Shown: positions 1 through 15,393 of the stretch, piece by piece | Layout of the letters: each line of letters starts with the position of its first letter | How positions within the stretch are numbered: position 1 is the stretch's first letter | Origin: Chryseobacterium vaccae | GTDB lineage: Bacteria; Bacteroidota; Bacteroidia; Flavobacteriales; Weeksellaceae | Direction: 5' to 3' | Assembly (NCBI RefSeq): GCF_009602705.1 | Contig: NZ_VSWH01000001.1 | Coordinates: 2,356,001-2,420,000, forward strand | Length of the DNA stretch: 64,000 nt | The notes under the pieces: generated by a model | Databases searched by the model: none | The model's input: only the letters and a program-made list of their open reading frames with translations | Told to the model about the DNA's origin: nothing | Program-made: the position numbers and the translations under genes

Positions 1-317
1 ATGGACCTGAATTTATATCTAAAAATCTTCAGCTATGGGCTCAGGAAAATAAAATAGAAATTCATTATATACAGCCTGGAAAACCAACACAAAATAGCCT
101 TATTGAAAGACTGAACAAAAGCTGCAGAAATGAACTTCTCAATATGTATGTCTTTAAAAGTTTACAAGACGCAGAAGAAAAAGCAAATCAATGGTGGATA
201 GAATATAACTATAATAGCCCCCACGAAGCATTAGGGAACATAAGTCCTAAAAAATATAAACAAAAAATGAAAGAAGAATCTATCATTTAGAATGGAAACA
301 AAATTGGGGAGCTTACA
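1..317 (+). mobile_element. IS3-family element, right-end remnant
   Basis: This is the 3' end of an IS3-family insertion sequence; the rest lies outside the window. It holds the C-terminal part of the integrase-type transposase and then about 27 bp to a probable end at AGCTTACA (311-317), which has the CA-3' dinucleotide usual for IS3 ends. An IS481 element appears to start directly after it. The left end is not visible, so I cannot tell whether the copy is complete. Confidence 0.6.
3..290 (+). CDS. IS3-family transposase OrfB, C-terminal part
   Basis: Open from the window edge in frame 3, stop TAG at 288-290, about 95 residues. It begins GPEFISKNLQLWAQ and contains IQPGKPTQNSLIERLNKSCRNE, which carries the last Glu of the DDE triad (in LIERLN) and the following basic helix. 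After that come the WWIEYNYNSPHEALGN and SPKKY motifs typical of the rve integrase core of IS3 (IS150/IS51-like) OrfB proteins. The enzyme would catalyse strand transfer together with OrfA, which is not in the window. Because the N-terminal half is missing here, activity cannot be judged. Confidence 0.85.
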   Translation, partial: GPEFISKNLQLWAQENKIEIHYIQPGKPTQNSLIERLNKSCRNELLNMYVFKSLQDAEEKANQWWIEYNYNSPHEALGNISPKKYKQKMKEESII

Positions 318-1528
318 TGTAATAGCCACGACTTTATCTGACAGTTAGGGGTTAAAAATAATTGTCAGTTATCCAATATTATCCTTACTTCCAAAAGTAA
401 GGATTTTTTGTTCCTCTGCAAGAGTTTCCAATAATTTCTCTTTTGCAATAGTTTTACTATCTAGAAACGTCTGCATCGGTGTTTTACCGTAACAATGTTT
501 TCCTGTATGCGTTCTTTCATTGTTGTAATACGACAACCAGCTGTTCAGGTCTAATTGCAGTTCTTCAATACTTCTGTAAATTTTCTTTCTGAAAGCTATG
601 GCATAAAACTCGTCCTGTATCGTCCTGTGAAAACGTTCACAAATACCATTGGTCTGAGGGCTTTTAGCCTTGGTCTTCGTATGATCGATATCTTCAATGG
701 CCAAATAGAGCTGGTATTCATGCTGTTCTCTTATTCCACAGTATTCCGTTCCTCGGTCTGTTAAAATTCTGAGTAAACGAAGTTCCTGCTGCTCAAAGAA
801 AGGGACTACCTGATCATTAAGCATGTCAGCAGCAATAAGAGCATTTTTACGGTCATATAGCTTTGCAAATACTACCTTTGAATATGTATCAATAAAAGTT
901 TGTTGATAAATATGTCCAACTCCTTTGATATTGCCTACGTAATAAGTGTCTTGAGCTCCTAAATATCCAGGATGATGAGTTTCAATTTCTCCATGAGCTT
1001 TTTTCTCTTCCTTAGCCCTTTCTAGTGCTGAAAGTTGAGATTCAGTAAGGACTACACCATCTTGAGCAGATTTGGCTTCTAGGGCTTTCAATCTTAGTTT
1101 AAACGTATGTAGATCGTGTCTTAACCAAATACTTCTGACTCCACCTGGTGATACAATGAAACCTTTCTTTTTAAGTTCATTACTTACTCTAAGCTGCCCC
1201 AAAGCAGGGTTTTCAATAGCTATATCAACAACAGCTTTTTCAATGACTTCATCTACACGATTCTTTAATACTGGCTTTCTTCTGGAGATTTCCTGTAATG
1301 CTAATTCACCTCCTTGCTCATACAATTCTTTAAATCTATAAAAACTGTCTCGGGAATAGCCCATCACCTTACAGGCTTTGGATACGTTTCCTAAATGTTG
1401 TGCTAATTCAAGTACGCCTAACTTGTTTTTGATAATCTTTTGTTGTGTTGTCATAATACTTAATCTGTTTTAAAGTTATTTAATTTGATTATAACTGTCA
1501 GATTAAGTATTGACTAATTCAGCTTACA
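318..1528 (-). mobile_element. IS481-family insertion sequence
   Basis: One transposase gene (369-1454) is flanked by inverted ends. An 11-bp perfect inverted repeat, TCTGACAGTTA, lies at 337-347 and 1492-1502. Outside it both sides run to TGTAA (left from 318, right ending at 1528 on the opposite strand). TGT is the usual IS481-family terminus, so I place the ends there, giving about 1.2 kb. I see no convincing target duplication. The element cuts the RHS tip to its right right after the DPDG junction and abuts the IS3 remnant on its left. The exact ends are inferred. Confidence 0.7.
369..1454 (-). CDS. IS481-family transposase
   Basis: A 361-residue DDE transposase. Residues 1-60 form a helix-turn-helix for end binding (ELAQHLGNVSKACKVMGYSRDSFYRFKE), residues 60-120 a second HTH/linker region, and residues 160-330 the rve catalytic core. 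The probable DDE triad is Asp in AQDTYYVG, Asp in ILTDRGTEYC and Glu in QTNGICERFHRT. The C-terminus keeps the YNNERTHTGKHCYGKTPMQTF block that follows the core in this family. Length and motif order look complete and no frameshift is visible, so the copy may be active. Its transcription runs the same way as the RHS locus. Confidence 0.92.
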   Translation of the reverse strand: MTTQQKIIKNKLGVLELAQHLGNVSKACKVMGYSRDSFYRFKELYEQGGELALQEISRRKPVLKNRVDEVIEKAVVDIAIENPALGQLRVSNELKKKGFIVSPGGVRSIWLRHDLHTFKLRLKALEAKSAQDGVVLTESQLSALERAKEEKKAHGEIETHHPGYLGAQDTYYVGNIKGVGHIYQQTFIDTYSKVVFAKLYDRKNALIAADMLNDQVVPFFEQQELRLLRILTDRGTEYCGIREQHEYQLYLAIEDIDHTKTKAKSPQTNGICERFHRTIQDEFYAIAFRKKIYRSIEELQLDLNSWLSYYNNERTHTGKHCYGKTPMQTFLDSKTIAKEKLLETLAEEQKILTFGSKDNIG

Positions 1529-1905
1529 ATATGTGTTCCTTCTCTTCCATCCGGATCAATAAACATGATAGGATTATCAAATGTATAATTATAAGGACTA
1601 TGCCTCGTCATCTTTTCCGCCAGCGGATCCACCACACCCCATCTTCCCAAATCCGGCATATACATCCTCGCTCCATAGTCATACATACCTGTCTCTTGCA
1701 ACTCTTTACCGTTGTACTTATAACTAAGATAGCCTCCTAATTTTCCTTTGGAAATCTGCCCGTCAATATGGTTCAGACCAAAAGGATAATAATTGTTCAC
1801 ATCCGTTATTTCAAGAGCGCCATCGCTGTTTTTGGCATAGCTCACCCTTGCGTTGCCCAAGTGGTCTCTATACTGGTAAATATAATGGTTTTCGTAAACC
1901 TGTAC
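1519..1905 (-). pseudogene. Displaced RHS tip 1, truncated by IS481
   Basis: The reading frame encodes the end of an RHS core: [70 protein letters not shown] and PIMFIDPDGR. After DPDGR only GTHIVS remains before a stop located inside the IS481 end, so the variable toxin domain is lost. There is no RHS N-terminus and no signal peptide. The first ATG (1860) lies within the core, and coding similarity extends up to the hairpin repeat near 1905. The core is of the same subtype as tip 3 (5360-6316) and differs from the intact RHS protein. It is most likely non-functional except as recombination substrate. Confidence 0.8.
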
Positions 1906-1963
1906 ATAAAAACCACTACAGATGCAGTGGTTTTTATGTTTATTAGCGCAAAGTCAGGAGACT
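1875..1963. repeat. RHS-module joint repeat, copy 1
   Basis: About 89 bp running from GGTAAATATA through a small hairpin (GGTTT-TCGT-AAACC), a perfect 10-bp hairpin AAAAACCACT / AGTGGTTTTT at 1908-1935, and on to GCGCAAAGTCAGGAGACT. Related copies occur at 4735-4823 and 6346-6430. On the minus strand it lies just downstream of the 198-residue gene, where the A-rich/T-rich hairpin could act as a terminator, and just upstream of a displaced RHS core fragment. Confidence 0.85.
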
Positions 1964-1988
1964 CATCACTAATTTTGATACAGTACAA

Positions 1989-2585
1989 TTATTTTCTTTT
2001 TTTTATATTTATTATTTCTCCGCCTTCATACAATTGATACAATTTCAACGAAGAAAACCTCTTTAAAAACTTTTTAAATCCATGAGGATTAGCAATTTCA
2101 GCGTCAATCATTTTACCATTAATGTCAGTAATTTTATAGTCTTTATTTATACCAATAGTCCAATGTTTAGTATTTTCGTCCAATCTACCAGAATAAGTTT
2201 CCTGATCTGATATTTCTGTATTATTTTTTTCATCAACTTTAAAATTTAATGATTCAAAATATTCTTGACATTTACTTGTTGAATTAAAGCCACAAAAAAC
2301 AATAATATTCTTGTTTTGAAATATAAACCATTTATAATTAACAGTATTTTTATAAAGTTTAAAGTCTTTGTCTAATGTTTCTATATATAAACTACTTTTA
2401 TTAGAAGTCGAATCTAAAAATATACTTATAGCTATATAATCTCCATATTTAAAAGGTCTTTTTAAAGTATCTTTCACATAAAGCTTCATTGCTTCTTTCG
2501 TTATTTTTCCCAATTTTTCAACTTTATTTTGTGCTGAATATTGAAAAAATAACAAAAATGATATTAAAAATATTAATTTTTTCAT
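1989..2585 (-). CDS. Secreted protein of unknown function, immunity candidate without toxin
   Basis: I do not recognise this 198-residue protein. Residues 1-18 form a signal peptide (MKKLIFLISFLLFFQYSAQ). The mature part is Lys/Asn-rich, with no membrane segment or obvious catalytic motif. It sits in the toxin array between a hairpin terminator (2613-2638) and the first joint repeat, in the place where the other modules have an immunity gene, but no RHS tip lies directly upstream. The DNA is strongly AT-rich compared with the RHS core, as in the other module genes. An immunity role is inferred from position, size and signal peptide only. It could also be a second immunity gene for the JAMM-type tip. 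Confidence 0.6.
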   Translation of the reverse strand: MKKLIFLISFLLFFQYSAQNKVEKLGKITKEAMKLYVKDTLKRPFKYGDYIAISIFLDSTSNKSSLYIETLDKDFKLYKNTVNYKWFIFQNKNIIVFCGFNSTSKCQEYFESLNFKVDEKNNTEISDQETYSGRLDENTKHWTIGINKDYKITDINGKMIDAEIANPHGFKKFLKRFSSLKLYQLYEGGEIINIKKRK

Positions 2586-2612
2586 TTTTCTTACTTTGTA
2601 AGCTACCCAATA

Positions 2613-2638
2613 AAAGCCACTGTTTTTGCAGTGGCTTT
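2613..2638 (-). terminator. Hairpin terminator between module genes
   Basis: Perfect 10-bp stem AAAGCCACTG / CAGTGGCTTT with a 6-nt loop, followed by an A/T-rich tract. It lies 11 bp after the stop of the 257-residue gene on the minus strand. Its stem resembles the joint-repeat hairpin (AAAACCACT / AGTGGTTTT), so it may be a degenerate copy of that repeat. Confidence 0.7.
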
Positions 2639-2648
2639 ATCATATTTA

Positions 2649-3422
2649 TCAATAAACAATTTTCCTTACTTCCAAAATATTCTCCTTATTATTCTCCAGA
2701 GTATAAACTTTTATTAAGTTTCCTTTAGAGTCAAATTGTTTCAATTTTTTCTCGATATAATAATCAAACAACTCTGTCTTATCATTTGCAGTCATACTTC
2801 CTTTAAATGATGCTATTTCATTATATGAGTTTAAACTATATACTCCTATTATTTGAGTTCTTGGAAAAGTAAAAGTCAGTTTTTCATAATTGTAACTTTT
2901 ATCATCAATCCAATTGTATCGTTCGATTCCATCAACAACAATATCATTATGAGAATTAAATAAAATGATGCGCTCAATTATACGATTTTCTTTATCAATC
3001 AAACAGAATTCTTTTGTTGAAAGATTTCCATTGGAATTAAATTTTTGTACCTGAATAGTATTTTTAGTATAATTATATTTATTAATCATTGATACTTCTT
3101 TATTTATCAATTTATTTTCCTTTTCAGAAATTACCATTCCTTCTGTTATTCTTTCTTCCTCTTTAATTTTATAATCATTATCAAGCTTTATAATGGTTTT
3201 TATCCATTCTTTATTTTTATCAGAGACATTCTGTATAGTAATCTCATTTTTATTTTGATCATAACTATAACGTCTTACAGAATTCAATTTACCATTTTTA
3301 TTGACGAGTACTTCGATTGTTTTGAAATTACTCATCGCAAGAATTTTAAGAGAATCTTTTGTTTGAAAATTTTGAGCAAGCAATAATGGGCCTAAAAAAA
3401 TTAAGAAAAATATATTTTTCAT
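2649..3422 (-). CDS. Secreted protein, candidate immunity for the JAMM-type tip
   Basis: A 257-residue protein that I do not assign to a family. Residues 1-16 form a signal peptide (MKNIFFLIFLGPLLLAQ). The mature part is rich in short beta-strand patterns such as NGKLNSVRRYSYDQNKNEI, FNSNGNLSTKEF and FDSKGNLIKVYTLENN, which look like degenerate YD/MORN-type hairpins. It starts 6 bp after the stop of the RHS tip encoding a JAMM-like domain and is followed by a terminator, so the two form a unit. Position right after a toxin tip plus a signal peptide suggests immunity acting in the periplasm. This is inference from context. Confidence 0.6.
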   Translation of the reverse strand: MKNIFFLIFLGPLLLAQNFQTKDSLKILAMSNFKTIEVLVNKNGKLNSVRRYSYDQNKNEITIQNVSDKNKEWIKTIIKLDNDYKIKEEERITEGMVISEKENKLINKEVSMINKYNYTKNTIQVQKFNSNGNLSTKEFCLIDKENRIIERIILFNSHNDIVVDGIERYNWIDDKSYNYEKLTFTFPRTQIIGVYSLNSYNEIASFKGSMTANDKTELFDYYIEKKLKQFDSKGNLIKVYTLENNKENILEVRKIVY

Positions 3423-3428
3423 AAAAAT

Positions 3429-4499
3429 TTATTGATTTTCTGGTTTAAACGTTTTATATACACCACCACTATAAACTCTAAATGTTGGTATTGGAATACG
3501 TGGATTACCTGCAGTTGCCCTATCTGGTGCTGACTCTATCGGGTTATTACCATCTCCTGGATGTGAATGGGTATAAATACTTCTCATCATTTGAATATCC
3601 TTTGTTGTTTTAAGAAAGTTTGAATAATAGTTTAACTGTACGGAAGGAATAAAACCTCCTATCTGTCCATTTACCCCAGTCCTTGACAAGTAAGAGAATT
3701 GCAATGTTCTACCTACCATGCCCTTATCTTTATTTCTTTCGGTATATTGTAACATATCATATTCATTTCCAGTTTTTGCATTTTTTTCTAAAAACTCAAA
3801 AAAAGAAACTGCATTTTGTTGATTTTCAAACTTATATATTTCAAAAAGAATATCTTTTGTTCTTTGTTCAGGTTTTCCTCTTACCAGTACATCATATTCC
3901 ACTTTTTCAAATGATTGTACCCGATCCTGAATCTGACCGTCTCTTTCCATTGTAAACTTTATCTGGTCTCCATTATCATCTGTTTTTCGGTTTCCGTTTT
4001 TATCAACAATGTAAAGTTCATCAGGTTGATCATTATCTTCAACTTTATTAAGAGCACCAGTATTTTCATTTAATTCCCAAGTATCTAAATTCATTCCATT
4101 AGGATCAATAAAACGAATTGGATTATTTCCTCCATAATTATATGTTGACATTGGCTGGTACATTTCCGCTAGTGGATCTACAACGCCCCATCTTCCCAAA
4201 TCCGGCATATACATCCTCGCTCCATAGTCATACATTCCCGTCTCTTGAAGCTCCTTGCCGTTGTACTTGTACTGATAAGCATTTTGTGTTGTTGCTGTAT
4301 AATCATGCAATAACCCAAATGGATAATAATTGTTCACTTCCACAATTTCCCCTGGCCTCCAGTCCTCTATACACCACCAACCTGTACAATTGGATGCATT
4401 AAACCTTCTTGGCTGGATAATTCCATCACCGCTTTTATCTGCATAGCTCAATCTTACATTTCCAAGATGGTCAATATAATGATAGACATATTGTCCCAA
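3429..4499 (-). CDS. Displaced RHS tip 2 with JAMM/JAB-like toxin domain
   Basis: The 356 residues counted from the ATG at 4499 are the end of an RHS core followed by about 225 variable residues. In-frame homology to the intact RHS protein continues upstream to about 4738 without any start codon or signal peptide, so this is a silent tip. The core ends at GRWGVVDPLAE and PIRFIDPNG. Near the C-terminus the sequence THSHPG, then ESAPDRATA, fits the JAMM zinc motif HxHP-x(n)-SxxD of JAB1/MPN peptidases, with 8 residues between HSHP and S. JAB-like domains are a known class of polymorphic toxin. The secreted 257-residue gene follows 6 bp later. Expression would need recombination onto an intact RHS gene. 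Confidence 0.75.
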   Translation of the reverse strand: MGQYVYHYIDHLGNVRLSYADKSGDGIIQPRRFNASNCTGWWCIEDWRPGEIVEVNNYYPFGLLHDYTATTQNAYQYKYNGKELQETGMYDYGARMYMPDLGRWGVVDPLAEMYQPMSTYNYGGNNPIRFIDPNGMNLDTWELNENTGALNKVEDNDQPDELYIVDKNGNRKTDDNGDQIKFTMERDGQIQDRVQSFEKVEYDVLVRGKPEQRTKDILFEIYKFENQQNAVSFFEFLEKNAKTGNEYDMLQYTERNKDKGMVGRTLQFSYLSRTGVNGQIGGFIPSVQLNYYSNFLKTTKDIQMMRSIYTHSHPGDGNNPIESAPDRATAGNPRIPIPTFRVYSGGVYKTFKPENQ

Positions 4500-4738
4500 A
4501 AGATCATCGTAATATCCCTCAGAGGTAGGGATGATTCTGAGTTTTAAGACCGGAACTTCATTGGGGCTAGGATGGTAAGTCCCTTCTCCATTCCATGATT
4601 CTATACCAAACGTAGACTTATATTGAAAGCCATACAGATAATAGGTTTCCAGGTTCTTAAAGAGCTTCTTTACTTTTACTCCATCTGCCCTATAGGTATA
4701 TTGGGTGAGATTTGAGTTTTGGGTAACCTGCTTAGGTA
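4190..4738. repeat. Direct repeat of the intact RHS core
   Basis: About 550 bp that nearly match about 7770-8320 inside the intact RHS gene, in the same orientation, with only scattered base changes by eye (for example CATTTTGTG versus CATTCTGTG). The match stops abruptly on one side at ATTTACC, at the hairpin repeat, and on the other at the GRWGVVD codons, where the toxins diverge. It is long enough for RecA-dependent exchange between the JAMM-type tip and the active RHS gene. Confidence 0.85.
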
Positions 4739-4823
4739 AATATAACGGTTTTCTTAAACCTATATATAAAAACCACTACAGATGCAGTGGTTTTTATGTT
4801 TATTGGCGCAAAGTCAGGAGACT
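4735..4823. repeat. RHS-module joint repeat, copy 2
   Basis: Same element as at 1875-1963: GGTAAATATA, small hairpin GGTTT-TCTT-AAACC, 10-bp hairpin AAAAACCACT / AGTGGTTTTT (4768-4795), then GGCGCAAAGTCAGGAGACT. Here the RHS core joined to it is a different stretch (coding YLPKQVTQ) from the one joined at copies 1 and 3 (coding YIYQYRDH). Both stretches share ATTTACC at the joint. Confidence 0.85.
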
Positions 4824-4855
4824 TTGCTTAGCTTTGGCTACTTATTTATGTTACT

Positions 4856-4934
4856 CCGAAGTTTGAAACTTCGGAAAGCAAGGGGAAGACCTTCATGGCA
4901 CAAGCGTGACGCTTGCCTTGCGCCAGCTGGGTTA
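4856..4934. repeat. Palindromes in the module spacer
   Basis: A perfect 9-bp palindrome CCGAAGTTT-G-AAACTTCGG (4856-4874) is followed by CAAGCG-TGA-CGCTTG (4901-4915) and then CGCCAGCTGGG. The second block resembles 6613-6652 (CGAGCGAGACGCTCG then CCAGCAGGGG), so both spacers hold relatives of one short palindromic repeat. Between the joint repeat (ends 4823) and the next gene (4932) I see nothing else. Confidence 0.6.
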
Positions 4935-5360
4935 GCGTTTATAAGCCAGTTTACTATTTTGCTTTCCCACATTGTCTATGTATAAACTACACATGTTTAA
5001 GCAGTCTTCATAAAAAGTTCTCTTCATTTTACTTGTCCAAATTATCTTATTATCTACTAATTCTTTATCAAATCGCTCTTTAGGTTGATGTCCATATATA
5101 CTAAGTGATTTTTTCAGTCTAAAAGAATACAACTTTCCTTTTTGAATTTTATATTTATACTCTTCTTGATTATTACAAACTTTAGAAACTGAAAATATTG
5201 CTTTTCCTGGTTTACTTTTTATATATATTATATAACTGTTATTTGTAGAATCTATTTTCTCAACCCTTGCTATCAAATTTATAGTATTTTCTTGTTGAGA
5301 AGATTGGCTAAAAATTGAAATTCCTAAAAAACTCAAAAATATTGCTAATAACTTTTTCAT
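4932..5360 (-). CDS. Small secreted protein, candidate immunity for tip 3
   Basis: A 142-residue protein with a signal peptide (MKKLLAIFLSFLGISIFSQ) and a basic mature part of about 123 residues with two Cys (CNNQEEY, EDCLNMC). No family recognised. Its ATG overlaps the stop of the upstream RHS tip by one base (TAATG), which points to translational coupling of a toxin and immunity pair. The DNA is AT-rich compared with the RHS core. An immunity role is inferred from coupling and position. The signal peptide suggests that its target acts outside the cytoplasm. Confidence 0.65.
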   Translation of the reverse strand: MKKLLAIFLSFLGISIFSQSSQQENTINLIARVEKIDSTNNSYIIYIKSKPGKAIFSVSKVCNNQEEYKYKIQKGKLYSFRLKKSLSIYGHQPKERFDKELVDNKIIWTSKMKRTFYEDCLNMCSLYIDNVGKQNSKLAYKR

Positions 5361-6316
5361 TATGGTAAGGTTTTAAAACGCCCTAAAGACGTCTGTTCTT
5401 TCGTTTTTTTATTTATATAAAATACTTCTTCTTCTGTGTATAAAAGTCTTCCATCAGTATTTCGTACCCTATCCTTTGTACGTTCAGTAGTGAAGTCACT
5501 ACCTGGGTCTCTAAATCTTGGATCTAATTTTTTTGCATCTTTATGAGCAGCATTATATCCTTTTGCGTTATTTTCTTCAGATGTTGCTCCAGGACTACCA
5601 GGACTATTGAGTAATCCTGAGTAAAGTTCAAGAGCTTCATGAAGAGTACCAACTCCTTTTGGTATACCTAAAGCTTCATCCATTTTTTCATTAACCATAG
5701 GATTTACGACATTAATTCCTATCATTTTCCCATTTCCAGCCATTTTGCTTCCTCCATAAGCTCCTCCAACATAAAATGTACCATCGTCGAATCTATAATC
5801 TCCATCTGATTTCAAGACCGCTATATTACAGTTATCTTGCGTTGCCTTTAAAAATGTTGCGGACGCATCCGTTAATTTTGCTCCTTTTACTGCTGTAGCT
5901 GTTACTTTTCCACCTTCGTCCATCTTCAAATCTAACTGTCCATTTGTAGCAGCCTGTAATTGAGCTAAAACCTTATCTTTATAATCTCCCGTTATAATAA
6001 CATCATTTACACCGCGGCCATCTGGATCAATAAATCTAATAGGATTGTTTACAGCATAGTTGTAAGGCGACCATCTGCGATATTGCTCCGCCAGCGGATC
6101 AACAACACCCCATCTTCCCAGATCCGGCATATACATTCTTGCGCCGTAATCATACATCCCTGTTTCCTGTAGCTCCTTGCCATTGTACTTATAGTTAAAA
6201 TAACTTCCCAACGTCCCTTTAGCTATTTGTCCTTCAATATGGTTGAGACCAAAAGGATAATAATTGTTCACATCCGTTATTTCAAGAACGCCTTCGCTGT
6301 TTTTGGCATAGCTCAC
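5360..6316 (-). CDS. Displaced RHS tip 3 with zincin-like toxin domain
   Basis: 318 residues counted from an internal ATG. Residues 1-100 are the end of an RHS core ([60 protein letters not shown]). The remaining ~215 residues are a variable domain with GTLHEALELY and, about 35 residues later, NAAHKDA. This HExxE...AHxxA layout is shared with the toxin of the intact RHS protein and suggests a metal-binding, zincin-like peptidase; the fold is inferred. There is no N-terminus or signal peptide, and the core frame stays open up to the joint repeat at 6346. The stop overlaps the start of the next gene (TAATG). The core subtype matches tip 1, not the intact protein. Confidence 0.75.
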   Translation of the reverse strand: MSYAKNSEGVLEITDVNNYYPFGLNHIEGQIAKGTLGSYFNYKYNGKELQETGMYDYGARMYMPDLGRWGVVDPLAEQYRRWSPYNYAVNNPIRFIDPDGRGVNDVIITGDYKDKVLAQLQAATNGQLDLKMDEGGKVTATAVKGAKLTDASATFLKATQDNCNIAVLKSDGDYRFDDGTFYVGGAYGGSKMAGNGKMIGINVVNPMVNEKMDEALGIPKGVGTLHEALELYSGLLNSPGSPGATSEENNAKGYNAAHKDAKKLDPRFRDPGSDFTTERTKDRVRNTDGRLLYTEEEVFYINKKTKEQTSLGRFKTLP

Positions 6317-6345
6317 CCTTGCATTACCAAGGTGGTCTCTATACT

Positions 6346-6430
6346 GGTAAATATAGCGGTTTTCATAAATCTTTATATAAAAACCACTACAGATGCAGTG
6401 GTTTTTATGTTTATTGGCGCAAAGTCAGGA
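6346..6430. repeat. RHS-module joint repeat, copy 3
   Basis: Third copy of the element: GGTAAATATA, imperfect small hairpin GGTTT-TCAT-AAATC, perfect hairpin AAAAACCACT / AGTGGTTTTT (6379-6406), then GGCGCAAAGTCAGGA. It joins the RHS core at YIYQYRDH, as in copy 1. The 365-bp space from 6317 to 6681 also contains the terminator at 6577-6607 and a palindromic repeat at 6613-6652. I see no other gene in it. Confidence 0.85.
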
Positions 6431-6576
6431 AATTTCGCAAACAAATGTATGCCCTACTTATATTTATTGATTACTTCTTTAATCAATATTTTCTTTTTTC
6501 CTTCAACCTTAGTATATCTTGTAAGATACCCATTTTGCCCATTTATACCTACAGCTGCGTAGCTGCATTTTAACAC

Positions 6577-6607
6577 AAAAAAAACTCGCTTTTTGCAAGG
6601 TTTTTTT
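6577..6607 (-). terminator. Intrinsic terminator of the RHS operon
   Basis: On the minus strand the stem is CTTGC-AAAAA-GCGAG (one G-U pair), preceded by A-rich and followed by eight T residues. It lies about 75 bp after the stop of the 116-residue lipoprotein gene and probably ends the transcript of the intact RHS cassette, leaving the displaced tips downstream silent. Confidence 0.65.
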
Positions 6608-6612
6608 ATCTA

Positions 6613-6652
6613 CCAACACGAGCGAGACGCTCGCACCAGCAGGGGGCAGCAT
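6613..6652. repeat. Short palindromic repeat
   Basis: CGAGCG-AGA-CGCTCG followed by CACCAGCAGGGGGCAGC. It is similar in layout to 4901-4931. It is probably a dispersed intergenic repeat rather than a regulatory site. Confidence 0.5.
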
Positions 6653-6681
6653 GAGATTTTTTTATACTTTAAGTTAATTTT

Positions 6682-7032
6682 TTATTTCTTAAACTGTATA
6701 TTATTACATTTATTTTTATCATACCAATCTAACCAACCAGGATAATCTTTTTCATAAGTTCCTAAAGGGTAAGTTCTTGCATAGTTTGCCATATCTTCAA
6801 ATGAAACCCTAGAATATTTTCCTATAAACTTCAAAGCTTCATAAGTATTTTTTGATTCTCCTTTATGGAATTTGATATAATCCTTAACAATTTCGATTTT
6901 TTTAAAATATTCCTGTTTAAAATCTAAATTTTCCGTACATTCTCCATTAATAGAGATATTATTATTTCTTTTTATAGAACTAGTACAATTATATAATAAC
7001 AAAAATGTTAAAATAAAAAATATATTCTTCAT
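6682..7032 (-). CDS. Small lipoprotein, candidate immunity of the intact RHS toxin
   Basis: A 116-residue protein with a lipoprotein signal (MKNIFFILTFLLLYNC, Cys16 followed by TSS). The mature part has aromatic and Lys-rich stretches such as YDKNKCNNIQFKK. I do not recognise the family. It begins 4 bp after the stop of the intact RHS gene and ends before a terminator, so it is co-transcribed with that toxin. By position it is the cognate immunity protein. A lipid anchor would place it at the envelope, facing the periplasm or the surface. This is contextual inference. Confidence 0.65.
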   Translation of the reverse strand: MKNIFFILTFLLLYNCTSSIKRNNNISINGECTENLDFKQEYFKKIEIVKDYIKFHKGESKNTYEALKFIGKYSRVSFEDMANYARTYPLGTYEKDYPGWLDWYDKNKCNNIQFKK

Positions 7033-7036
7033 ATTA

Positions 7037-10000
7037 CTATAACTTTGTCTTTTTAATTCTTAATCCTCCTTCATCTGTTGGCCAAATAGCTTGATTTGTT
7101 TTAGTTTTATCTTTTTCTTGATATACATTAATGCTCATTGGTCCATCTGTTTCTACTCTTTCATTCCCATTTACTTTTCCTTCTTTTTTAAAAGCTTTTG
7201 CATGTGCTTTATCAAAATCTGGTAATTTTACAATATTACCACTGTCATTTCTTTCGACTTTCCCAAGCTTTCCTTGTGAAATACCCATTTTAGCTTTTTC
7301 CAATTGTTCAGTATGTTCGTGTGTTAAAGCACCAGCACTACTAGTACCACCTTTACCTGCTTTATCAAATTCTAAGACATCAACTATATCTATTTTTCCT
7401 GTTTGCCAACTTCCAACTTCTGTCATTTTGTCATTTTCTACTATTGATTGACTAACAACTTCTTTTGCTCCAACCACTTCATTATAGCTTTCATAGAAAG
7501 CTTGTTGTTCTTTTGTTAGGGAAGTATCTTTATTAATCATATTAAGAGTTACCTTATATGTATCTGTACCTTCTATTTTTGTATAAATTGCTGAATATTT
7601 ACCTCCTAGTGAGGCACTCACTAAATCCTCATAGGATTTCCGTGCCGTATCAGTAGCAAATGAAAGAATTAATTCATTTCCGTCAGGATCCATAAACGCA
7701 ATTGGATTATTTCCTGCATAGATATAAGATGACATTGAAAGATATTTTTCAGCTTTATTATCCACCACACCCCATCTTCCCAAATCCGGCATATACATCC
7801 TCGCTCCATAGTCATACATTCCCGTCTCTTGAAGCTCCTTGCCGTTGTACTTGTACTGATAAGCATTCTGTGTTGTTGCTGTATAATCATGCAATAACCC
7901 AAATGGATAATAATTGTTCACTTCCACAATTTCCCCTGGCCTCCAGTCCTCTATACACCACCAACCTGTACAATTGGATGCATTAAACCTTCTTGGCTGG
8001 ATAATTCCATCACCGCTTTTATCTGCATAGCTCAATCTTACATTTCCAAGATGGTCAATATAATGATAGACATATTGTCCCAAAAGATCATCGTAATATC
8101 CCTCAGAGGTAGGGATGATTCTGAGTTTTAAGACCGGAACTTCATTGGGGCTAGGATGGTAAGTCCCTTCTCCATTCCATGATTCTATACCAAACGTAGA
8201 TTTGTACTGAAAGCCATCCAGATAATGGGTTTCCAGATTTTTAAAGAGCTTCTTCACTTTTACTCCATCTGCCCTATAGGTATATTGGGTGAGATTTGAG
8301 TTTTGGGTAATCTGTTTTGGTAAATTTAAATAATTATACTGAATTGAAGAAATGCCTTTATCCGGATGACTGGTCATATTCCCATTTCCGGCGCCATTAT
8401 CATTGTCATACCCAATTGTTCCGGGACTGGCAAGGTATGGATAGCCTGATGAATTCTGCTGAGCATCGGTCACCTTAGTCAGCTTATTGCCTGTATAATC
8501 ATATCTTAAATCATCAATCACAACAGCAGCTGTACTTCCTGTCTGGAGGGCAGCTGATCTTTTCAGTCTAGTGATATTTCCGTTCAGATCATATTCCGGG
8601 ATTTCAAAATATTCTTTGGCCGTTTCATTACCCTGCTTCTGGTAAAAACCTGCGGAAAGACGGTTTAATCCGTCATAAACATAGCCATATCTTTTCAATG
8701 GTTCGTTTTCTTCGGTTAACGTTTTCCAGGATACTTCTGCGATATTTCCGTTGAATTTAGGCTTTACTTTTAAACTGCTGTAATCATTGTTTGGTGTTTC
8801 TTCTCCTTCTACCTGATTGTAGTTAATCTTATAACCAAACAGGTCATTACCTAAGTTACCAGGATCGTTGATCTGGGTCATCCAGCCTCTGATATTATAC
8901 AGATAATTAATCGTCTGCAATGGTGATCCTGCATTGGTTCCTCCCACCTTCTTGGTTTCCAATTGAGACAGCTCATTGTAGCTGTTCTGGGCCAGAATCT
9001 CTTCAGGATTACTGTCCACCTGATGCTTATGAACGAGTAACCTGTTCTGGTGGTCATACGTGAAATTTTCTGTAATTACTCTTTCGGTATCGGTGCTTAG
9101 CCTTTTGTGCCGTGTTACACCTTTTTGAACAGCTCCTGCAAAATCAAGCTTAGATTCTGTTTTGGTGTAGCCTCCTAAATGATTAATCGAGTGGGTTCCG
9201 ATCACTCTTCCTTTGGTATCATAATAAGAGTAATTTGTGGTCCAGTTATCATCTTCAATATTCTTCACCAGGCTCATCACAGCAAGACCTTTGGTACTTC
9301 TTCCATCTAAGGAAGGGGTATCAGTCAGAACAGTTTCTCCTTCAATAGATGTTGGAAAAGAAGGATTGAAGCTGTACTGGGGATATGTATCATAATAATT
9401 AACACTCAGAACTTTTTTAAGAGCATTAAAATAATCATTGGTATATTGCACCTGCATCCCGTCCTGAGTAAATCCTGTGGTATGCCTCTTTTCCACAATT
9501 AAATTAGGACCTGCCTGAGCCTGCATGCTGCTTCTGCTGCCTCCTGCAATAATTGCGGTATAAGCAACCCTGCCATAAGAATCATATTTGGTAAGCAGCC
9601 ATTCGTTTTTCTGCTCTAAACTCGCATCCTGGGTAAGGACCAGACGGTCTGATTTATCATACACCATGTATTCCCAGCCTTTACCCGGAAGTTTCTTTTC
9701 TACCAAACGGTTTCTACCGTCATAACGGTACTGATAGCAAAGATTTTTGAGCGTGGCTTCATCCAGCGATGCCGCTCCGGAAGCTAATGGCGGGAGAACA
9801 AAAGCCAACTGATCATATTCATTATAAACATAGTAGGTGTCTGTATTTTTGATTTTGTTGAGTATTTTTCTGACTAAAATAACCTGGCCTTTTCCATTCT
9901 TGAATTCGATGGTCTTATTACCGTCTTCATCAATAATTGTGTTTTTATACAGCTGTGCAGCACCATAGCTTTCTACAGAACTAAACTCTGATTGGGTAGC

Positions 10001-10516
10001 TCCGTTTACCCAGGTCGTGGTGACGGTATATTTCCTTACGTCCCCGTCTTCAGAAGCATCATACTCAAATTTCACAGGTTTTCCTGCCCATGCTGTTCCT
10101 ACCTGCTTCTGTTCAAGAATACGGTCTAAAGGTGAGTTTTCCAGGACTTTCTCAGCATAGATCTTTTCTGAGCCATAAGGTGTACTTGAAGCATTAGCCA
10201 GTGGATTGGGAACAATAGCACCGTTTAAGGTTCCTGCCTGGGGAATGGGAAGGTATTCTTTAATCTGCCTTCCAAACTCATCATACGTGATATGGGTAAC
10301 CACATCTCTTCCCAGAGGAGAAGCTTTTACATTAACAACCTGTTTGGGCCTTCCAAGACCATCAACATACTGAACGGTTTCTAATGTTTTGGAAGGCTGG
10401 GTTCCGTTATAATCAAGGTAGGTCTTGGACTGGACGTAATTTTCTGTATCGGTAAGCTGAGCCTGGGCTATACCTGAGAGCAGCAGGGTACCTATCGGGA
10501 ATATGTATTTTTTCAT
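7037..10516 (-). CDS. RHS-repeat protein (DUF6443 type) with C-terminal zincin-like toxin
   Basis: 1159 residues. Signal peptide 1-19 ([20 protein letters not shown]), then a DUF6443-like region ([14 protein letters not shown], residues ~25-160). Many YD repeats follow ([26 protein letters not shown]), which in RHS proteins form a beta-cage around the tip. The conserved core end [16 protein letters not shown] ... [20 protein letters not shown] ... [10 protein letters not shown] ends near residue 946. The last ~213 residues are the variable toxin, with LTHEHTEQ near residue 1066 and KAHAKAF about 38 residues later, a possible HExxE...H metal site. It is preceded by 5 bp after the 1099-residue gene and followed after 4 bp by a lipoprotein gene. 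Secretion is probably by T9SS or a dedicated route; no T9SS sorting domain is visible in this protein. Confidence 0.88.
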
Positions 10517-10521
10517 CGTTC

Positions 10522-13500
10522 TTAGTTTTTATAGTGGTATTGGTATTCTTTAATGATTCTGCCGCTCGGGTTGTGTTCTCTTACTTCTTTCAGCCTGTTC
10601 GCCGTATCATACAGGTATACTTCCCGGATTCCCGAAGGTGGTGTGATGCTTTTCACCCCGATTAATGGATCGTAGCTGTAAGTGGTGATCTGATAGCCGG
10701 ATAATGAAGCATGAGTTCTGAAACTGTCCAGTGCCGCCAAGAGGTTCAGCTCAGCCTGTTCTGCCGATACGCCCTGAGGGGGAATATTGTCATTGTCTGA
10801 CGAGGTGATGATACCGGTCACTAAAGAGGATGGAATATCGGTGTATTTAATGCCTTCTATTTTAGCGATCGGCTGGGTACTGTTATATCCCCAAATGATG
10901 GCGGTGGAAATTCCGTCTTTGGTGGTGTACTGTAACGGATTTCCTTTGGTATCATATTTATCATAGCTAGCATCTGTCGCTAAAGTATTAGTCTGAATAT
11001 CCAGTGACTGCACAGAACTTGGGAATAAATGGGAAGGATCATTATACAGGGTTTCCGCCCTGGAAACGGTTTTATTATTTTTCTTCATTTCGGTTTCCAG
11101 AGGAGTACTGATCTGATTCGCTGTAATAAGGCGCTGATTTCCTTTTTCATAGGCATATTTATAGATGCTTTCCTGGGTTGTGCCATCTGCCAGCTGTGTT
11201 TTCTGCGAAATCAGATTGATCGGGCTGTTGATATTCGTGTCTGAATAATTGTAATCCGTTACCGTTTCTATGGTTTTATTGTTCTGGAAGTATTCCTTTT
11301 CCCGGGTCTGTTTTAATTCAACCTTGCCTCCATAAATTTTTATCGGGTTGTAATTAAACAGCTGCAGAGCCGGCACTGTAACATTAGGTGAATGTGAATG
11401 AAACTTCACAATATCAAAATCTGCTCCGAAAGCAATCTCATCAGCGGTTTCCGGAACATATCCTGAAAGGCTGTTCTTAATATTGCTGAAGGCATAGGTA
11501 CTGGATTGTTCCTTTAAAACAGCGGAACCTTTTCTGATCACTGTTTTAATGGGAAGTCCCATTTTCCATTCATTGTAAGGGTCAGAATTCATGGCAAAGA
11601 TGCTGGTCCCTCCTTCAGAAGCATTCGTAAAGAAGTGATCTACTTCTCCCAGGTCATTCTGTTCCGTTACTTTGGAATAGGTCACAATATCGGAAGAATT
11701 ATAACTGATATACGAGTTTCCGGACGATGAAATTCTAAAATTTTCAACAATTACATCGTTTCCGGACATTTCAGGTATTGCCGGATCTGGTCTCAGGATT
11801 CTGTAAAAAGGACTGCTGAAATGGAATTTCCTGCGTAATGCTCCTGAGGAATTGTATAAGAACCTTCTGGTATTGCTTACGTTGGAGGCATCCACATCTT
11901 CAATCTGTTTTATTCTTAATCCTCCAACCGGTTTTTCTGTATTGTTGGTAATCATCTGATCATACGTCATCGAAATACTTACACTACAGCTGCATTCATT
12001 GACTCTTCTTAAAGTGAGTTTAATGGGCGTTAATGTCGGAATGATATCATACTGAACTCCGTTTCGGCTCATTGTCTTACCACCCTGGCCCTGCACAGAC
12101 CAGCTGCCGGTACAGCTGCCCAGAGGTCCCTCATAATCAGGATCCATCCCGACAGGAGGAAAGCCGCTTGTATCATTAATACCGTTATAACATCCGTTGG
12201 CAAAGCCTACTTTGATTTTAACATTCATTTTATCCTGAAAATCAGCAGGAGTGAAGGTATGGAACATCTCCTTCGTTTCGTAATACTGATTAGCAGGGTT
12301 CTCAACCTCCATATAATCACTGATTAGGGTGGTAACGTAGCTAATCTGAGGGAATAGTCCTACAGAGGTGGTCACCACAGAGTTGCTTTCATATTCTAGT
12401 TTTCTTTCTCCTCCTGTCGGATATTTTATTTTCGTCAGAACCCCCATTTGAGCGTAAAGCGAGTTGGTATACCGGTCTCTCCCCGTAGGAATATTACTGA
12501 TTGAATAAGCCGAAATCCCGTCTACATACCTTGGAATGCTGGTATTGGAGACCATGGTAGAATTAAAATATCCCCAATAATCATCACTATTGCCGTTTCT
12601 TGGCGGAAGGGCATAGCCGTCATTATAGGTGAATTCATAAAAGTTGTTCTCCAGGTTATTTTTTACCCTGTGCAATTTTAAGCGGTAATCTACATGGGTT
12701 TTTACATTGCTATCAGATTCAAAATAGCTGTATATAAAGGAAAAATCCCTGATAATCTTCCCGGCTTTATTTTTTACGATGATCCTTTTTAAGGCTACAG
12801 CCCCGGTATTGGAGTTCAGGTCTTTCCGGAACTGGCTGTCATCAGTAGTCATTTCTCCCTGATCCCCGCTGTACAGGAAATTAACTTCTCCATCCTGGAA
12901 GGTAATTTTGGTAATTAACTGTTCTGCATTATTTTCAGTGCTCTGAACGCTGGGCGGGTTTTCTTCCATAAATCCGTCTTCATAGACATAATAGGGAATA
13001 ACCACATTCTTCAGCAGGTTCTTCGTCTCGTATTTTGTCTTTTCAATATAGCCCTGATTTTTATTGTACTCAAAACTGATTATATTATTTTTGTAGGTCT
13101 TCAGGTTATCTAACAGATAAAGATTGCTGGAGGTTTCTGCAAAGCTTCCGAGGCGGCGTGACATCACCATATTTTTAGGGCTTAATGCGAAAATATTTCC
13201 CTTGTTGTCAGTTACATTGATGGAAGAGATATCTGCCGAAATTTTCAGGTCTTCATGAGGAATGGTATAGCCTTTTCCTGCATTGACAATAAAGCTCCCT
13301 CCGGCTCCCGGTAAAGAGTAGCTGTACAGATCCGGCTTTGAATCTATGAGGTTATTATAGAACAGATCACTGGCATTATCGCTCAGATCATACGGGCTGT
13401 TGGAATAATAATTATGGGCTTCGGTATAATTTTTAAAATAAATCCCGGCTTTTTCATCATCCATTCCTTCAATGGATCTCATCACCCTGTTGGGAATGCT

Positions 13501-13821
13501 TAAGGACCAGCCCAGACCCGCTGAACTTGCAATTTCATTTTGCTTAACGCCTCCTGTATTGTATTTTAAGCTGATGGGAATACTTAAACCATCTACCTGA
13601 ATGGTATAGATAGGAATGTCAATATTGACCTGCCCTTTAAAATAATCCACAGGGATGTTATCTACTTTGCCAAATGAATAGGCATCAGGACTTGTTGGGA
13701 ATGACAGGATCTGTTTAGGTGCCGATCCGGTTGACTGGCCTATTCCGGCCTGTCCATAGAACAGTGCCCCTAAAAAAACAGGGACCAGGCCCAGAGCTTT
13801 TATATAATTCGTTTTCTTCAT
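10522..13821 (-). CDS. Large secreted YD-repeat/RHS-associated protein
   Basis: 1099 residues with an N-terminal signal sequence ([24 protein letters not shown]). Residues ~35-110 carry a pattern found at the start of many Bacteroidetes RHS-associated proteins: a [17 protein letters not shown] block, [11 protein letters not shown] and [10 protein letters not shown]. The middle is beta-rich with conserved Trp/Tyr/Gly, and the end has true YD repeats ([27 protein letters not shown]). No toxin domain, RHS core junction or T9SS sorting domain is seen at its C-terminus. It is encoded directly before the intact RHS gene in one transcript, so it is likely a partner in assembly or delivery of the RHS toxin. 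That role is inferred. Confidence 0.8.
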
Positions 13822-13824
13822 AAT

Positions 13825-13867
13825 CAGTTTTTATTTCTTTATCAGTTTTTATTTCTTTATCAGTTTT
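13825..13867. repeat. Tandem 18-bp duplication over a stop codon
   Basis: CAGTTTTTATTTCTTTAT occurs twice head to tail (13825-13842, 13843-13860), followed by a partial third copy. On the minus strand each unit reads KLIKK-stop, so the last codons and stop of the T9SS protein gene are duplicated in the short space before the 1099-residue gene. Confidence 0.85.
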
Positions 13868-15393
13868 GCATTCGCTGTTTTATTAGTATCGGTTTTAATC
13901 ACTACTAGGTAAGCCCCCTGAACCAGTGGCTGGGTATTAATCTTAGTCACTTTATTCTTAGTTTTCACGTTCTGAAGCTGTCTTCCGCCCATGTCATACA
14001 CCAGAATATCGGATTCTGAAAAGTCAACACCTATTTCTATGTAAGCATAATCGGAGACCGGATTCGGATAAATTTTGATGTCCTGTTTTTCGATGAGCTT
14101 ATCCAGCTGACTGTCACCCAGTTTCACAATTTTCCAGTTCTCTTTTCCTAATTCCTCCGCACTGGTGCCGGCAAGAATGATCGAGCCATCTCTGTTCAGT
14201 TTAATATCCGAAAGTCTTTCTTCTTTCTTTCGGTTTTCTCCGGTAATATGCTTTCTCCACTGTTCGTTGCCCTCCTGATCCAGATACAGCATCCAGAATG
14301 TTTCATCATCTTTTTCTATTCTCCCTTCTGCCTGGGTGTAACCACCGAGTAATATTCCTTTGGAAGTTTTATCATCTGCGGAATGAATCACACTCATCCC
14401 CATCAGAATATCACGGTTTTTGAAGTTGTAGGATTTCTGCCATTGTTCTTCTCCTCTTTCGTTTAAAGCAACCAACCATAAATCAGTGCCTTCTTCTATG
14501 CCTACGGTTTTGTTGCCGGATCTCTCGGATCGGGATTCTCCGCCAATAAGATAACCTGTGGATGTTAAAGCAAGAGTTCTTAAATGATCATCTCCTTTTC
14601 CTCCATAATTCTTTTCCCATTCTACTTTTCCCGTTTTATCAAGCTTTACAATCCAGTAATCGCCTTCGCCGGAATTCTCCGTTTTCTTGTTTCCTCCAAT
14701 TGAGCTTCGTGAATAAATCCCTATTAGGACACCGCCGTCTTTTGTCGGGATCATTTTCTCTACTTCATCTAATCCTTTTCCGCCTAAGATTACTTGCGAA
14801 AGTTCTTTCCCATTTTTATCCAGTCTGATGATCCAGGCATCTTTAGAGCCATAACCTTTGGAAGAGTTCTGAACATTACCTGCCACAAAGAATCCTAAAT
14901 CTGTAGTCTGAACGACTGCTCTGGCTTCTTCATCGGAAGCGGTTCCTAATGTTTTCTGCCATAATTCATCCCCGAATTCATTCAGTCTTACCAGCCAGAG
15001 ATCTGATCCGCCTTTGGATTCTTCTTTTTTGTCCAGTCCCTTACCTGAAAACGAGGTGCCTGCTATAAGGAATCCTCCTTCCTGCGTAGAAACAGAAGCG
15101 GAAAGATAGTCGTGATTTTGTCCTGAAAGGTATTTTTCCCAGACCTGTTCTCCCTGTTGGTTGAGTTTAACAAGGTGGAAATCGTAGCCATTGTTCTGCT
15201 TGTTAGCAGCTGGTTGTTGGCTTTTTGTTTGAATTGAGCTTCCAGTAATCAGGTATTGCTGATCGATGGTGGTGGTAATCTGGCTTAGGAAATCCTGAGT
15301 GGAGGATTTGAGGTCTTTCTGCCATAAGACTTCCTGCGCAGAAAAAGTAAAGACGCTACATACAGTCAGAGCGCCTGCATACATTTTTCTCAT
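13849..15393 (-). CDS. T9SS type A sorting domain beta-propeller protein
   Basis: 514 residues. Signal peptide (MRKMYAGALTVCSVFTFSAQ), then about seven blade-like repeats of ~50-60 residues with the pattern (D/S)(Y/L)W(I/L)VKL(D/N)..G...W.K..GG and GG(F/V/Y)LI(A/G)G. The C-terminal ~75 residues are a T9SS type A sorting domain (IKIYPNPVSDYAYIEI ... GAYLVVIKTD ... AKLIKK). The protein should cross the outer membrane by T9SS and be attached to or released from the surface. It is the first gene of the minus-strand run leading to the RHS toxin, 27 bp before the next gene. A role in surface display or delivery of the toxin is possible but not shown by the sequence. Confidence 0.85.
   Translation of the reverse strand: MRKMYAGALTVCSVFTFSAQEVLWQKDLKSSTQDFLSQITTTIDQQYLITGSSIQTKSQQPAANKQNNGYDFHLVKLNQQGEQVWEKYLSGQNHDYLSASVSTQEGGFLIAGTSFSGKGLDKKEESKGGSDLWLVRLNEFGDELWQKTLGTASDEEARAVVQTTDLGFFVAGNVQNSSKGYGSKDAWIIRLDKNGKELSQVILGGKGLDEVEKMIPTKDGGVLIGIYSRSSIGGNKKTENSGEGDYWIVKLDKTGKVEWEKNYGGKGDDHLRTLALTSTGYLIGGESRSERSGNKTVGIEEGTDLWLVALNERGEEQWQKSYNFKNRDILMGMSVIHSADDKTSKGILLGGYTQAEGRIEKDDETFWMLYLDQEGNEQWRKHITGENRKKEERLSDIKLNRDGSIILAGTSAEELGKENWKIVKLGDSQLDKLIEKQDIKIYPNPVSDYAYIEIGVDFSESDILVYDMGGRQLQNVKTKNKVTKINTQPLVQGAYLVVIKTDTNKTANAKLIKK

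What the first reader, a model, noticed from the sequence alone, without database searches (positions are those of the whole stretch)
1..15393. Polymorphic RHS toxin locus with an array of silent replacement tips
One intact RHS gene (7037-10516) is followed on the same strand by at least three RHS core fragments lacking N-termini (tips at 5360-6316, 3429-4738, 1519-1905), two of them with their own C-terminal domain and small downstream gene. This is the layout of a toxin-tip cassette reservoir as known for RHS and CDI systems in Proteobacteria, here in a flavobacterium with a T9SS-sorted propeller protein and a 1099-residue YD-repeat protein upstream in the same run. The latter two may be part of the delivery apparatus.
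Basis: partly seen in the sequence, partly recalled or inferred. Interest (0 to 1): 0.82.

Follow-up and report, generated by a model that had tools for sequence, protein, structure and literature searches.

The report
RHS toxin locus with spare tips
This is a bacterial weapon gene followed by a row of spare toxin-and-antidote cassettes; a relative carries one such cassette as a spare where this genome uses it actively, so these bacteria appear to trade toxins, as is already known for other bacteria.

Summary
The intact RHS gene (7037-10516, minus strand) is followed by six orphan core-tip cassettes, three in the window and three before its start. Each is preceded by a hairpin repeat (63-93 nt matched); a seventh copy closes the array near a tRNA-Gln gene. 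The live tip and immunity gene of this genome's third RHS locus occur as an orphan in relative G053, with synonymous divergence 0.011-0.019 against 0.45 for katG: recent transfer of tip plus immunity. Cassettes orphaned in both genomes have dN/dS 0.16-0.28. Of 34 multi-member clusters of related tips, 20 contain live and orphan members. The T9SS propeller and YD protein belong to the system: all 59 testable full-length loci have both upstream. Predicted folds lean reciprocally to the two halves of Tc toxins (YD to TcB, RHS to TcC), with weak scores. No VipB match was found; SprA is present. Displacement arrays are known in Enterobacteria, CDI systems and the flavobacteria Ornithobacterium and Bergeyella, so this is a variant of a known kind. 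Silence, toxicity, delivery and in-strain swapping remain untested.

The parts
13849..15393 (-). 514-aa beta-propeller-type protein with T9SS type A sorting domain; first gene of the three-gene module
   Evidence: Por_Secre_tail E 8.8e-11 and TIGR04183; upstream of 59 of 59 full-length RHS loci; match at E 1e-30 or better in 167 of 173 genus genomes
10522..13821 (-). 1099-aa YD-repeat protein, TcB-like shell half (inferred)
   Evidence: Homologue in 59 of 59 loci; AlphaFold2 model (pLDDT 76) prefers TcB to TcC chains; profile's only PDB hits are YenB, not significant (E 0.33)
7037..10516 (-). Intact RHS gene: signal-peptide-like N-terminus (by eye), DUF6443, RHS core, DPxG, live C-terminal tip
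   Evidence: core end matches RHS2/YenC2/TccC2 at E 1e-10 to 3e-9, after mosquito SGS4 at 1.6e-13; model prefers TcC to TcB chains
6682..7032 (-). Putative immunity gene of the live tip, lipoprotein-like N-terminus (by eye)
   Evidence: 4 nt after the RHS stop codon
6346..6438 (-). Boundary repeat D3: hairpin plus start of core fragment
   Evidence: 92% to the reference copy
5360..6316 (-). Orphan 1: core fragment of another core type plus full-length tip
   Evidence: TIGR03696
4932..5360 (-). Putative immunity gene of orphan 1
   Evidence: overlaps the end of the tip frame
4735..4827 (-). Boundary repeat D3, reference copy; its hairpin region folds at -20.7 kcal/mol, z -5.1
3429..4738 (-). 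Orphan 2: core fragment of the main gene's own core type plus tip (JAB-like toxin match below cut-off)
   Evidence: 94.4% nt identity to the main gene over 640 nt, 68-69% to the full-length genes at genome 2325501 and 2097982
2649..3422 (-). Putative immunity gene of orphan 2; the tip-immunity pair is also an orphan in G053, 87.8% over 1538 bp
1989..2585 (-). Immunity-like gene without a toxin of its own (inferred)
   Evidence: 41% identical to the C-terminal part of orphan 5's 564-aa frame
1875..1967 (-). Boundary repeat D3
   Evidence: 91% to the reference copy
1519..1860 (-). Orphan 3: core fragment, tip cut off where an IS element begins
369..1454 (-). IS transposase inside the array (rve domains)
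   Evidence: terminal repeats 318-347/1492-1521
3..290 (+). C-terminal end of a second IS transposase lying mostly before the window (genome 2355469-2356290)

Best explanation
A polymorphic toxin system. A fixed three-gene operon makes a T9SS-sorted propeller protein, a TcB-like RHS shell half and a TcC-like RHS half that carries the toxin tip after a DPxG motif; a short gene after it makes the immunity protein. Incoming tip-immunity cassettes recombine into the RHS gene at the end of the core, where a 32-codon block stays similar (mean 82% nt) even between genes whose upstream cores differ. The old tip is pushed downstream as an orphan, behind a hairpin and without the N-terminal export part, and so should be silent as a toxin. 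Shown: gene order, array, boundary repeats, tip/backbone decoupling, recent interspecies transfer of one tip-immunity pair, low dN/dS of shared orphans. Inferred: displacement by recombination at the core, silence, toxicity, immunity, shell assembly, T9SS-linked export, interbacterial target.
For: Array with boundary repeats. Orphan 2 carries the main gene's own core, 94.4% over 640 nt against 68-69% for the two nearest other full-length genes. Live tip and immunity of the third RHS locus are an orphan in G053: dS 0.019 and 0.011 against 0.448 for katG, edges near tip start and at immunity end. 20 of 34 multi-member tip clusters mix live and orphan tips. In 6 of 6 comparable live/orphan pairs (8 tried, 2 without a comparable backbone; pairs picked for similar tips) the tip is less diverged at synonymous sites than the backbone. 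Three comparisons of genes orphaned in both genomes give dN/dS 0.16, 0.19 and 0.28. Same-locus live-orphan codon identity 0.648 against 0.551 for other loci of the same genome; 0 of 2000 permutations reach it. Module in 59 of 59 loci. Reciprocal TcB/TcC preference of the folds. No VipB match, SprA present.
Against: No within-strain comparison and no expression data were available. The cassette shared with G053 ends at the immunity stop, not at a hairpin, so the repeat was not the right-hand edge there. Orphans further from the main gene are not more often truncated: 7 of 39, 3 of 24, 3 of 14, 2 of 9, 1 of 6, 1 of 3 and 0 of 1 at positions 1 to 7. Same-locus codon similarity could also come from common descent of duplicated cassettes. 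dN/dS of the exchanged tip X is 0.62, on few changes. Tips have almost no family match, so toxicity is by analogy. Fold evidence is weak: for the YD model the lowest E-values are to T6SS Rhs chains and TcB leads by TM only, 0.31-0.38; for the RHS model the lowest E-value is to a T6SS Rhs chain and the highest TM, 0.56, to mosquito SGS1; the RHS profile's only PDB hit is T6SS RhsA. No SpvB/TcdB Pfam match.
Confidence: 0.72

Rival explanations
1. The orphans are mainly an immunity store: cells keep displaced cassettes for their immunity genes, and the tips are passengers.
For: An immunity-like gene without a toxin lies in the array (1989-2585). An ORF of 60 aa or more starts just after 87 of 99 orphans with 100 aa or more behind the core motif (77 of 81 for live tips). 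Expression of an orphan immunity protein is reported for CDI (PMC3150448, passages read).
Against: Two orphan tips also show low dN/dS (0.16 and 0.19), and 92 of 114 orphans keep 150 aa or more after the core motif, which decay of passengers would not predict.
Confidence: 0.4
2. The fragments are simply decaying remnants of tandem duplications of the RHS gene, with no continuing exchange.
For: 22 of 114 orphans are truncated; two IS elements lie in the array; G053 keeps a degraded immunity remnant at the orthologous site.
Against: Recent interspecies transfer with dS 0.011-0.019; mixed live/orphan clusters; low dN/dS of shared orphans.
Confidence: 0.1
3. The hairpin-core repeat is a dedicated cassette recombination site with which cassettes excise and insert.
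For: Present before all six orphans and at the array end, one more copy than orphans, as in a site-bounded cassette array. The hairpin pattern has 13 sites in the genome, 8 of them in this 22-kb locus. It also lies at RHS arrays in 5 of 6 other genomes searched, 19 of 51 sites in all six; these genomes were chosen because they match the repeat.
Against: The transferred cassette's right edge is at the immunity stop, not at the repeat. In the sixth genome, G124, none of 8 sites is in the array. Across species a perfect hairpin lies near 34 of 115 orphan starts against 72 of 2300 random positions, which ordinary terminators after immunity genes would also give. Besides the two IS transposases I noticed no recombinase gene in the array's ORF list, but did not search for one.
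Confidence: 0.15

Closest known systems
Rhs C-terminal displacement arrays of Enterobacteria (Jackson 2009, PMC2935791; passages read, part of the abstract among them)
   Same: Intact rhs gene followed by dissociated tips with core fragments; a single-crossover circular-intermediate model fits
   Different: There core regions within a locus were always identical; here five of six orphan cores differ in type from the main core and share mainly a block of about 96 nt. T9SS organism; extra TcB-like and propeller genes
Rhs orphan tip arrays in Ornithobacterium hominis and Bergeyella cardium (PMC6421346, PMC13183296; passages read)
   Same: Flavobacterial orphan tips with putative immunity genes; near-identical tip-immunity pair shared between genera
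   Different: There one RHS gene of more than 9 kb with SpvB/TcdB signatures (O. hominis) and no T9SS propeller mentioned in the passages; here two genes plus propeller, with boundary repeats and dS evidence
Apibacter Rhs proteins with SpvB/TcdB domains beside T9SS type A sorting proteins (PMC8125069; passages read)
   Same: Association of TcB-like Rhs proteins with T9SS-sorted neighbours
   Different: No constant three-gene module or fold comparison in the passages read
CDI and Rhs orphan toxin/immunity modules of Proteobacteria (PMC3150448; passages read)
   Same: Orphan toxin/immunity pairs behind an intact gene; interchange between strains
   Different: Different carrier proteins and secretion routes
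TANFOR polymorphic toxins of Bacteroidetes (PMC7073777; passages read)
   Same: Bacteroidetes polymorphic toxins with T9SS-secreted neighbours
   Different: Other N-terminal domain; orphan arrays are not mentioned (0 uses of 'orphan')
Tc toxin B-C cocoon (PDB chains such as 4igl and 6l7i, named by the searches)
   Same: Two RHS proteins, the C half carrying the variable tip; reciprocal fold preference
   Different: No TcA match in this genome (search inconclusive), no SpvB domain match, immunity genes and orphan tips present

Membership tests
Rhs polymorphic toxin with displacement array | Intact gene with Rhs_assc_core and variable tip after DPxG | tested here: met
   DPxG at the expected place in 66 of 82 live and 85 of 117 orphan core ends, and in the window gene
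Rhs polymorphic toxin with displacement array | Orphan core fragments with unrelated tips and following small genes | tested here: met
Rhs polymorphic toxin with displacement array | Same tip live in one genome and displaced in another | tested here: met
   (between species; no within-species pair available)
Rhs polymorphic toxin with displacement array | Tip toxic, neighbour neutralises it | not testable with these tools
   needs expression tests
Tc toxin (TcB-TcC) | TcB-like and TcC-like RHS halves | tested here: inconclusive
   YD model: TcB chains TM 0.35-0.37, TcC chains 0.11-0.14. RHS model: TcC chains 0.34-0.43, TcB chains 0.10-0.16. But lowest E-values are to T6SS Rhs chains in both, the RHS profile's only PDB hit is T6SS RhsA, and no SpvB/TcdB Pfam match was found in the YD protein or five relatives
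Tc toxin (TcB-TcC) | TcA translocation subunit | tested here: inconclusive
   PF18276 not found in own genome, but no control genome rang
T6SS Rhs effector | T6SS in the genome; PAAR or similar N-terminus | tested here: not met
   No VipB match, E. coli control positive (one profile only, a divergent Bacteroidetes T6SS could be missed, recalled); only DUF6443 found at the N-terminus
T9SS substrate module | T9SS present and sorting domain in module | tested here: met
   SprA present; sorting domain found on the propeller only, not on the RHS or YD protein

The most novel reading that the evidence does not exclude
A genus-wide interbacterial weapon built as a split Tc-like B-C cocoon displayed through T9SS with an interchangeable propeller partner. 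Its toxin-immunity cassettes move between species as units, and the boundary hairpin-core repeat both silences displaced tips and serves as the exchange site.
Probability: 0.2. Interest if true: 0.75.

Novelty: new variant of a known kind. Interest (0 to 1): 0.5.

Why it matters
It shows with synonymous-divergence evidence that a toxin-immunity cassette recently crossed between two species and differs in state, live in one and stored in the other. It also ties a large family of RHS proteins (DUF6443; the term is in no paper of the held library) to one constant three-gene module with a T9SS propeller. That makes the open question of how T9SS bacteria deliver RHS toxins testable by a few deletions.

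Tried and rejected
Age gradient along the array: not seen. Crude signal-peptide scoring of immunity genes: discarded, because 405 of 656 control ORFs also passed. Dedicated recombination site: kept only as a rival, because the G053 cassette edge is not at the repeat. A simple terminator scan did not list the D3 hairpins, although folding gives z -5.1; they are called terminator-like only. Pfam and NCBIfam on nine tips or tip-bearing frames gave no toxin family above cut-off: two sub-threshold JAB-like toxin hits and a few weaker ones in Pfam, and in NCBIfam the Rhs core plus one sub-threshold hit. Sequence search of the YD protein against PDB chains found nothing. The links between G053 contigs C31, C30, C22 and C6 are not proven. 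C6 adjoins the flank of the own third RHS locus; C22, which holds the shared cassette, is unanchored.

Parts and rows used. Structure alignments used the window protein plus 39 of 57 YD frames listed (A1) and plus 48 of the 80 named loci (A2). Pfam saw 5 YD relatives. Loci L118 and L084, which overlap L070 and L046, were dropped (length counts), but not, and only L118 has no part, where L084 is counted. One search used 115 of 125 orphans (also dropped: those without a computed homology start or too near a locus end). One search pairs were picked from the most similar live/orphan tips.
Full report
What is there. The window is genome positions 2356001-2420000 of a two-contig 5.1-Mb genome. The minus-strand run 15393 to 7037 holds a 514-aa protein with a T9SS sorting domain, a 1099-aa YD-repeat protein and an 1159-aa RHS protein with DUF6443 and Rhs_assc_core. 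Behind it lie six orphan core ends, at genome 2362140, 2360218, 2357669, 2354355, 2352778 and 2350927.

Boundary repeats. A 93-nt element lies before the orphans in the window. Seven matches (63-93 nt, 91-100% identity) occur in the array, one before each of six orphans and one closing it. It contains a hairpin with a 14-bp stem (region at -20.7 kcal/mol, z -5.1), followed by sequence that reads in frame into the RHS core (by eye). The hairpin pattern occurs at 13 sites in the genome, 8 of them in this locus. In six other genomes, chosen for matching the repeat, 19 of 51 sites lie at RHS arrays, none of them in G124. Over 115 orphans of the loci held, a perfect stem of 8 or more lies near the start of the core homology in 34, against 72 of 2300 random positions. 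Terminators after immunity genes would explain much of that, and the random positions were not matched for being intergenic.

Displacement. Orphan 2 carries the main gene's own core type: 94.4% over 640 nt, against 68-69% over 566-664 nt for the full-length genes at 2325501 and 2097982. The other five orphans have a different upstream core. Over 35 live-orphan pairs, mean ungapped nucleotide identity is 0.57 in the 32 codons upstream, 0.82 in the 32-codon block around the core motif and 0.60 in the 32 codons downstream. Codon identity at shared residues in this block is 0.648 for live-orphan pairs of one locus (51 pairs), 0.551 for other loci of the same genome (62) and 0.542 for other genomes (4559); none of 2000 permutations reached the observed mean. 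Common descent of duplicated cassettes could give part of this.

Exchange between species. The live tip and immunity gene of the third RHS locus of this genome (2097982) match an orphan in relative G053 at 95.4% over 1605 bp. Synonymous divergence is 0.019 (tip) and 0.011 (immunity) against 0.448 for katG between the same genomes. Identity rises inside the core block, is 93-100% per 40-column window from the tip start on, and falls at the end of the immunity gene. G053 contig C6 carries further cassettes and adjoins the sequence that flanks this third locus here (89% over 9.7 kb); contig C22, which holds the shared cassette, is not anchored. The G053 core end closest to the window gene (contig C30, 86%) carries a tip with no match here. 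At the site of the window array G053 lacks the module: it has a degraded piece of the array's last immunity gene and a different gene with a T9SS sorting domain.

Selection and spread. Two tips that are orphans in both genomes have dN/dS 0.16 and 0.19, and one of their immunity genes 0.28; the exchanged tip itself gives 0.62 on few changes. From 82 full-length and 117 orphan core ends, 182 tips of 60 aa or more form 98 clusters; 34 have more than one member and 20 of these mix live and orphan tips, some within one locus. In 6 of 6 comparable pairs of 8 tried, picked for similar tips, the tip is less diverged at synonymous sites than the backbone. Full-length genes followed by at least one orphan: 42 of 81 loci with a full-length gene, a lower bound because many loci are cut by contig ends, and with two overlapping loci counted. 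Rhs_assc_core was found in 164 of 170 genus genomes, up to 31 matches each, 31 being the most that were scored.

The module. All 59 full-length loci with at least 5.5 kb upstream, this one included and one overlapping another, have a YD homologue and the propeller upstream. The propeller's best segment is 68-92% identical in the other loci, the YD protein's 26-61%, and some YD matches cover only part of the protein. The loci were chosen by likeness to the RHS gene or to D3, so this holds for that family. The YD model (pLDDT 76) fits TcB chains (TM 0.35-0.37) better than TcC chains (0.11-0.14), although the lowest E-values are to T6SS Rhs proteins, with TM about 0.1; the YD profile's only PDB hits are YenB at a non-significant E of 0.33. 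The RHS model (pLDDT 80) fits TcC chains (TM 0.34-0.43) and most fused B-C chains (0.37-0.54) better than TcB alone (0.10-0.16); its lowest E-value is to a T6SS Rhs chain and its highest TM, 0.56, to mosquito SGS1. By sequence the core end matches SGS4 first and then TcC proteins, while a profile of 49 RHS cores finds only T6SS RhsA. So the shell fold is clear, the TcB/TcC assignment is a lean. The genome has SprA and no VipB match.

Prior work. Displacement with a circular intermediate was proposed in 2009 (PMC2935791, passages). Orphan tips are described in O. hominis and B. cardium (PMC6421346, PMC13183296, passages), and T9SS-sorted neighbours of Rhs genes in Apibacter (PMC8125069, passages). 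Nine literature searches listed no title or abstract start that describes this three-gene module or these arrays in Chryseobacterium; I read passages of six papers only, and the library lacks most subscription journals.

Verdict. The locus is a displacement array of a polymorphic toxin system, in a variant with a two-gene RHS shell that leans to TcB/TcC and a T9SS propeller partner. Silence, toxicity and delivery are inferred.

Noticed in passing
window 369-1454 and 3-290 (genome 2355469-2356290): Two different IS transposases sit side by side in the array; the first begins where the tip of orphan 3 is cut off.
   Followed up: partly
L113 14371-16065: Orphan 5 reads as one 564-aa frame in which core, tip and an immunity-like domain are fused; the immunity-like part is 41% identical to the lone gene at window 1989-2585.
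   Followed up: partly
L113 12280-12351: A tRNA-Gln gene lies just beyond the closing boundary repeat of the array.
   Followed up: no
genome 2369852, 295959, 2331589, 2092722, 322204: Five propeller copies in this genome are 94-100% identical to the window's copy, against at most 86% in the listed matches of other genus genomes (list cut; 92% in locus L032), while the other five full-length RHS genes here are 49-93% identical to the window gene: concerted evolution or recent spread of the propeller.
   Followed up: partly
G053 C23:315061-316888 (L136 15061-16888): At the orthologous site the relative has a degraded immunity remnant and a different gene with a T9SS sorting domain instead of the RHS module.
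   Followed up: partly
L114 3167-3534 and genome about 2349500-2349870: The last immunity gene plus closing repeat of this array is 92.7% identical over 371 bp to the end of the G053 array on contig C6, which lies at another chromosomal site: cassettes seem to move between arrays.
   Followed up: no
window about 6590-6645 and 4900-4940: REP-like palindromes (such as GCGAGCGTCTCGCTCG) lie between cassettes; one of this kind was also seen before an orphan in locus L037.
   Followed up: no
genus genomes: Many genomes also carry single RHS frames of about 3400 aa, perhaps the fused form of the split pair.
   Followed up: no
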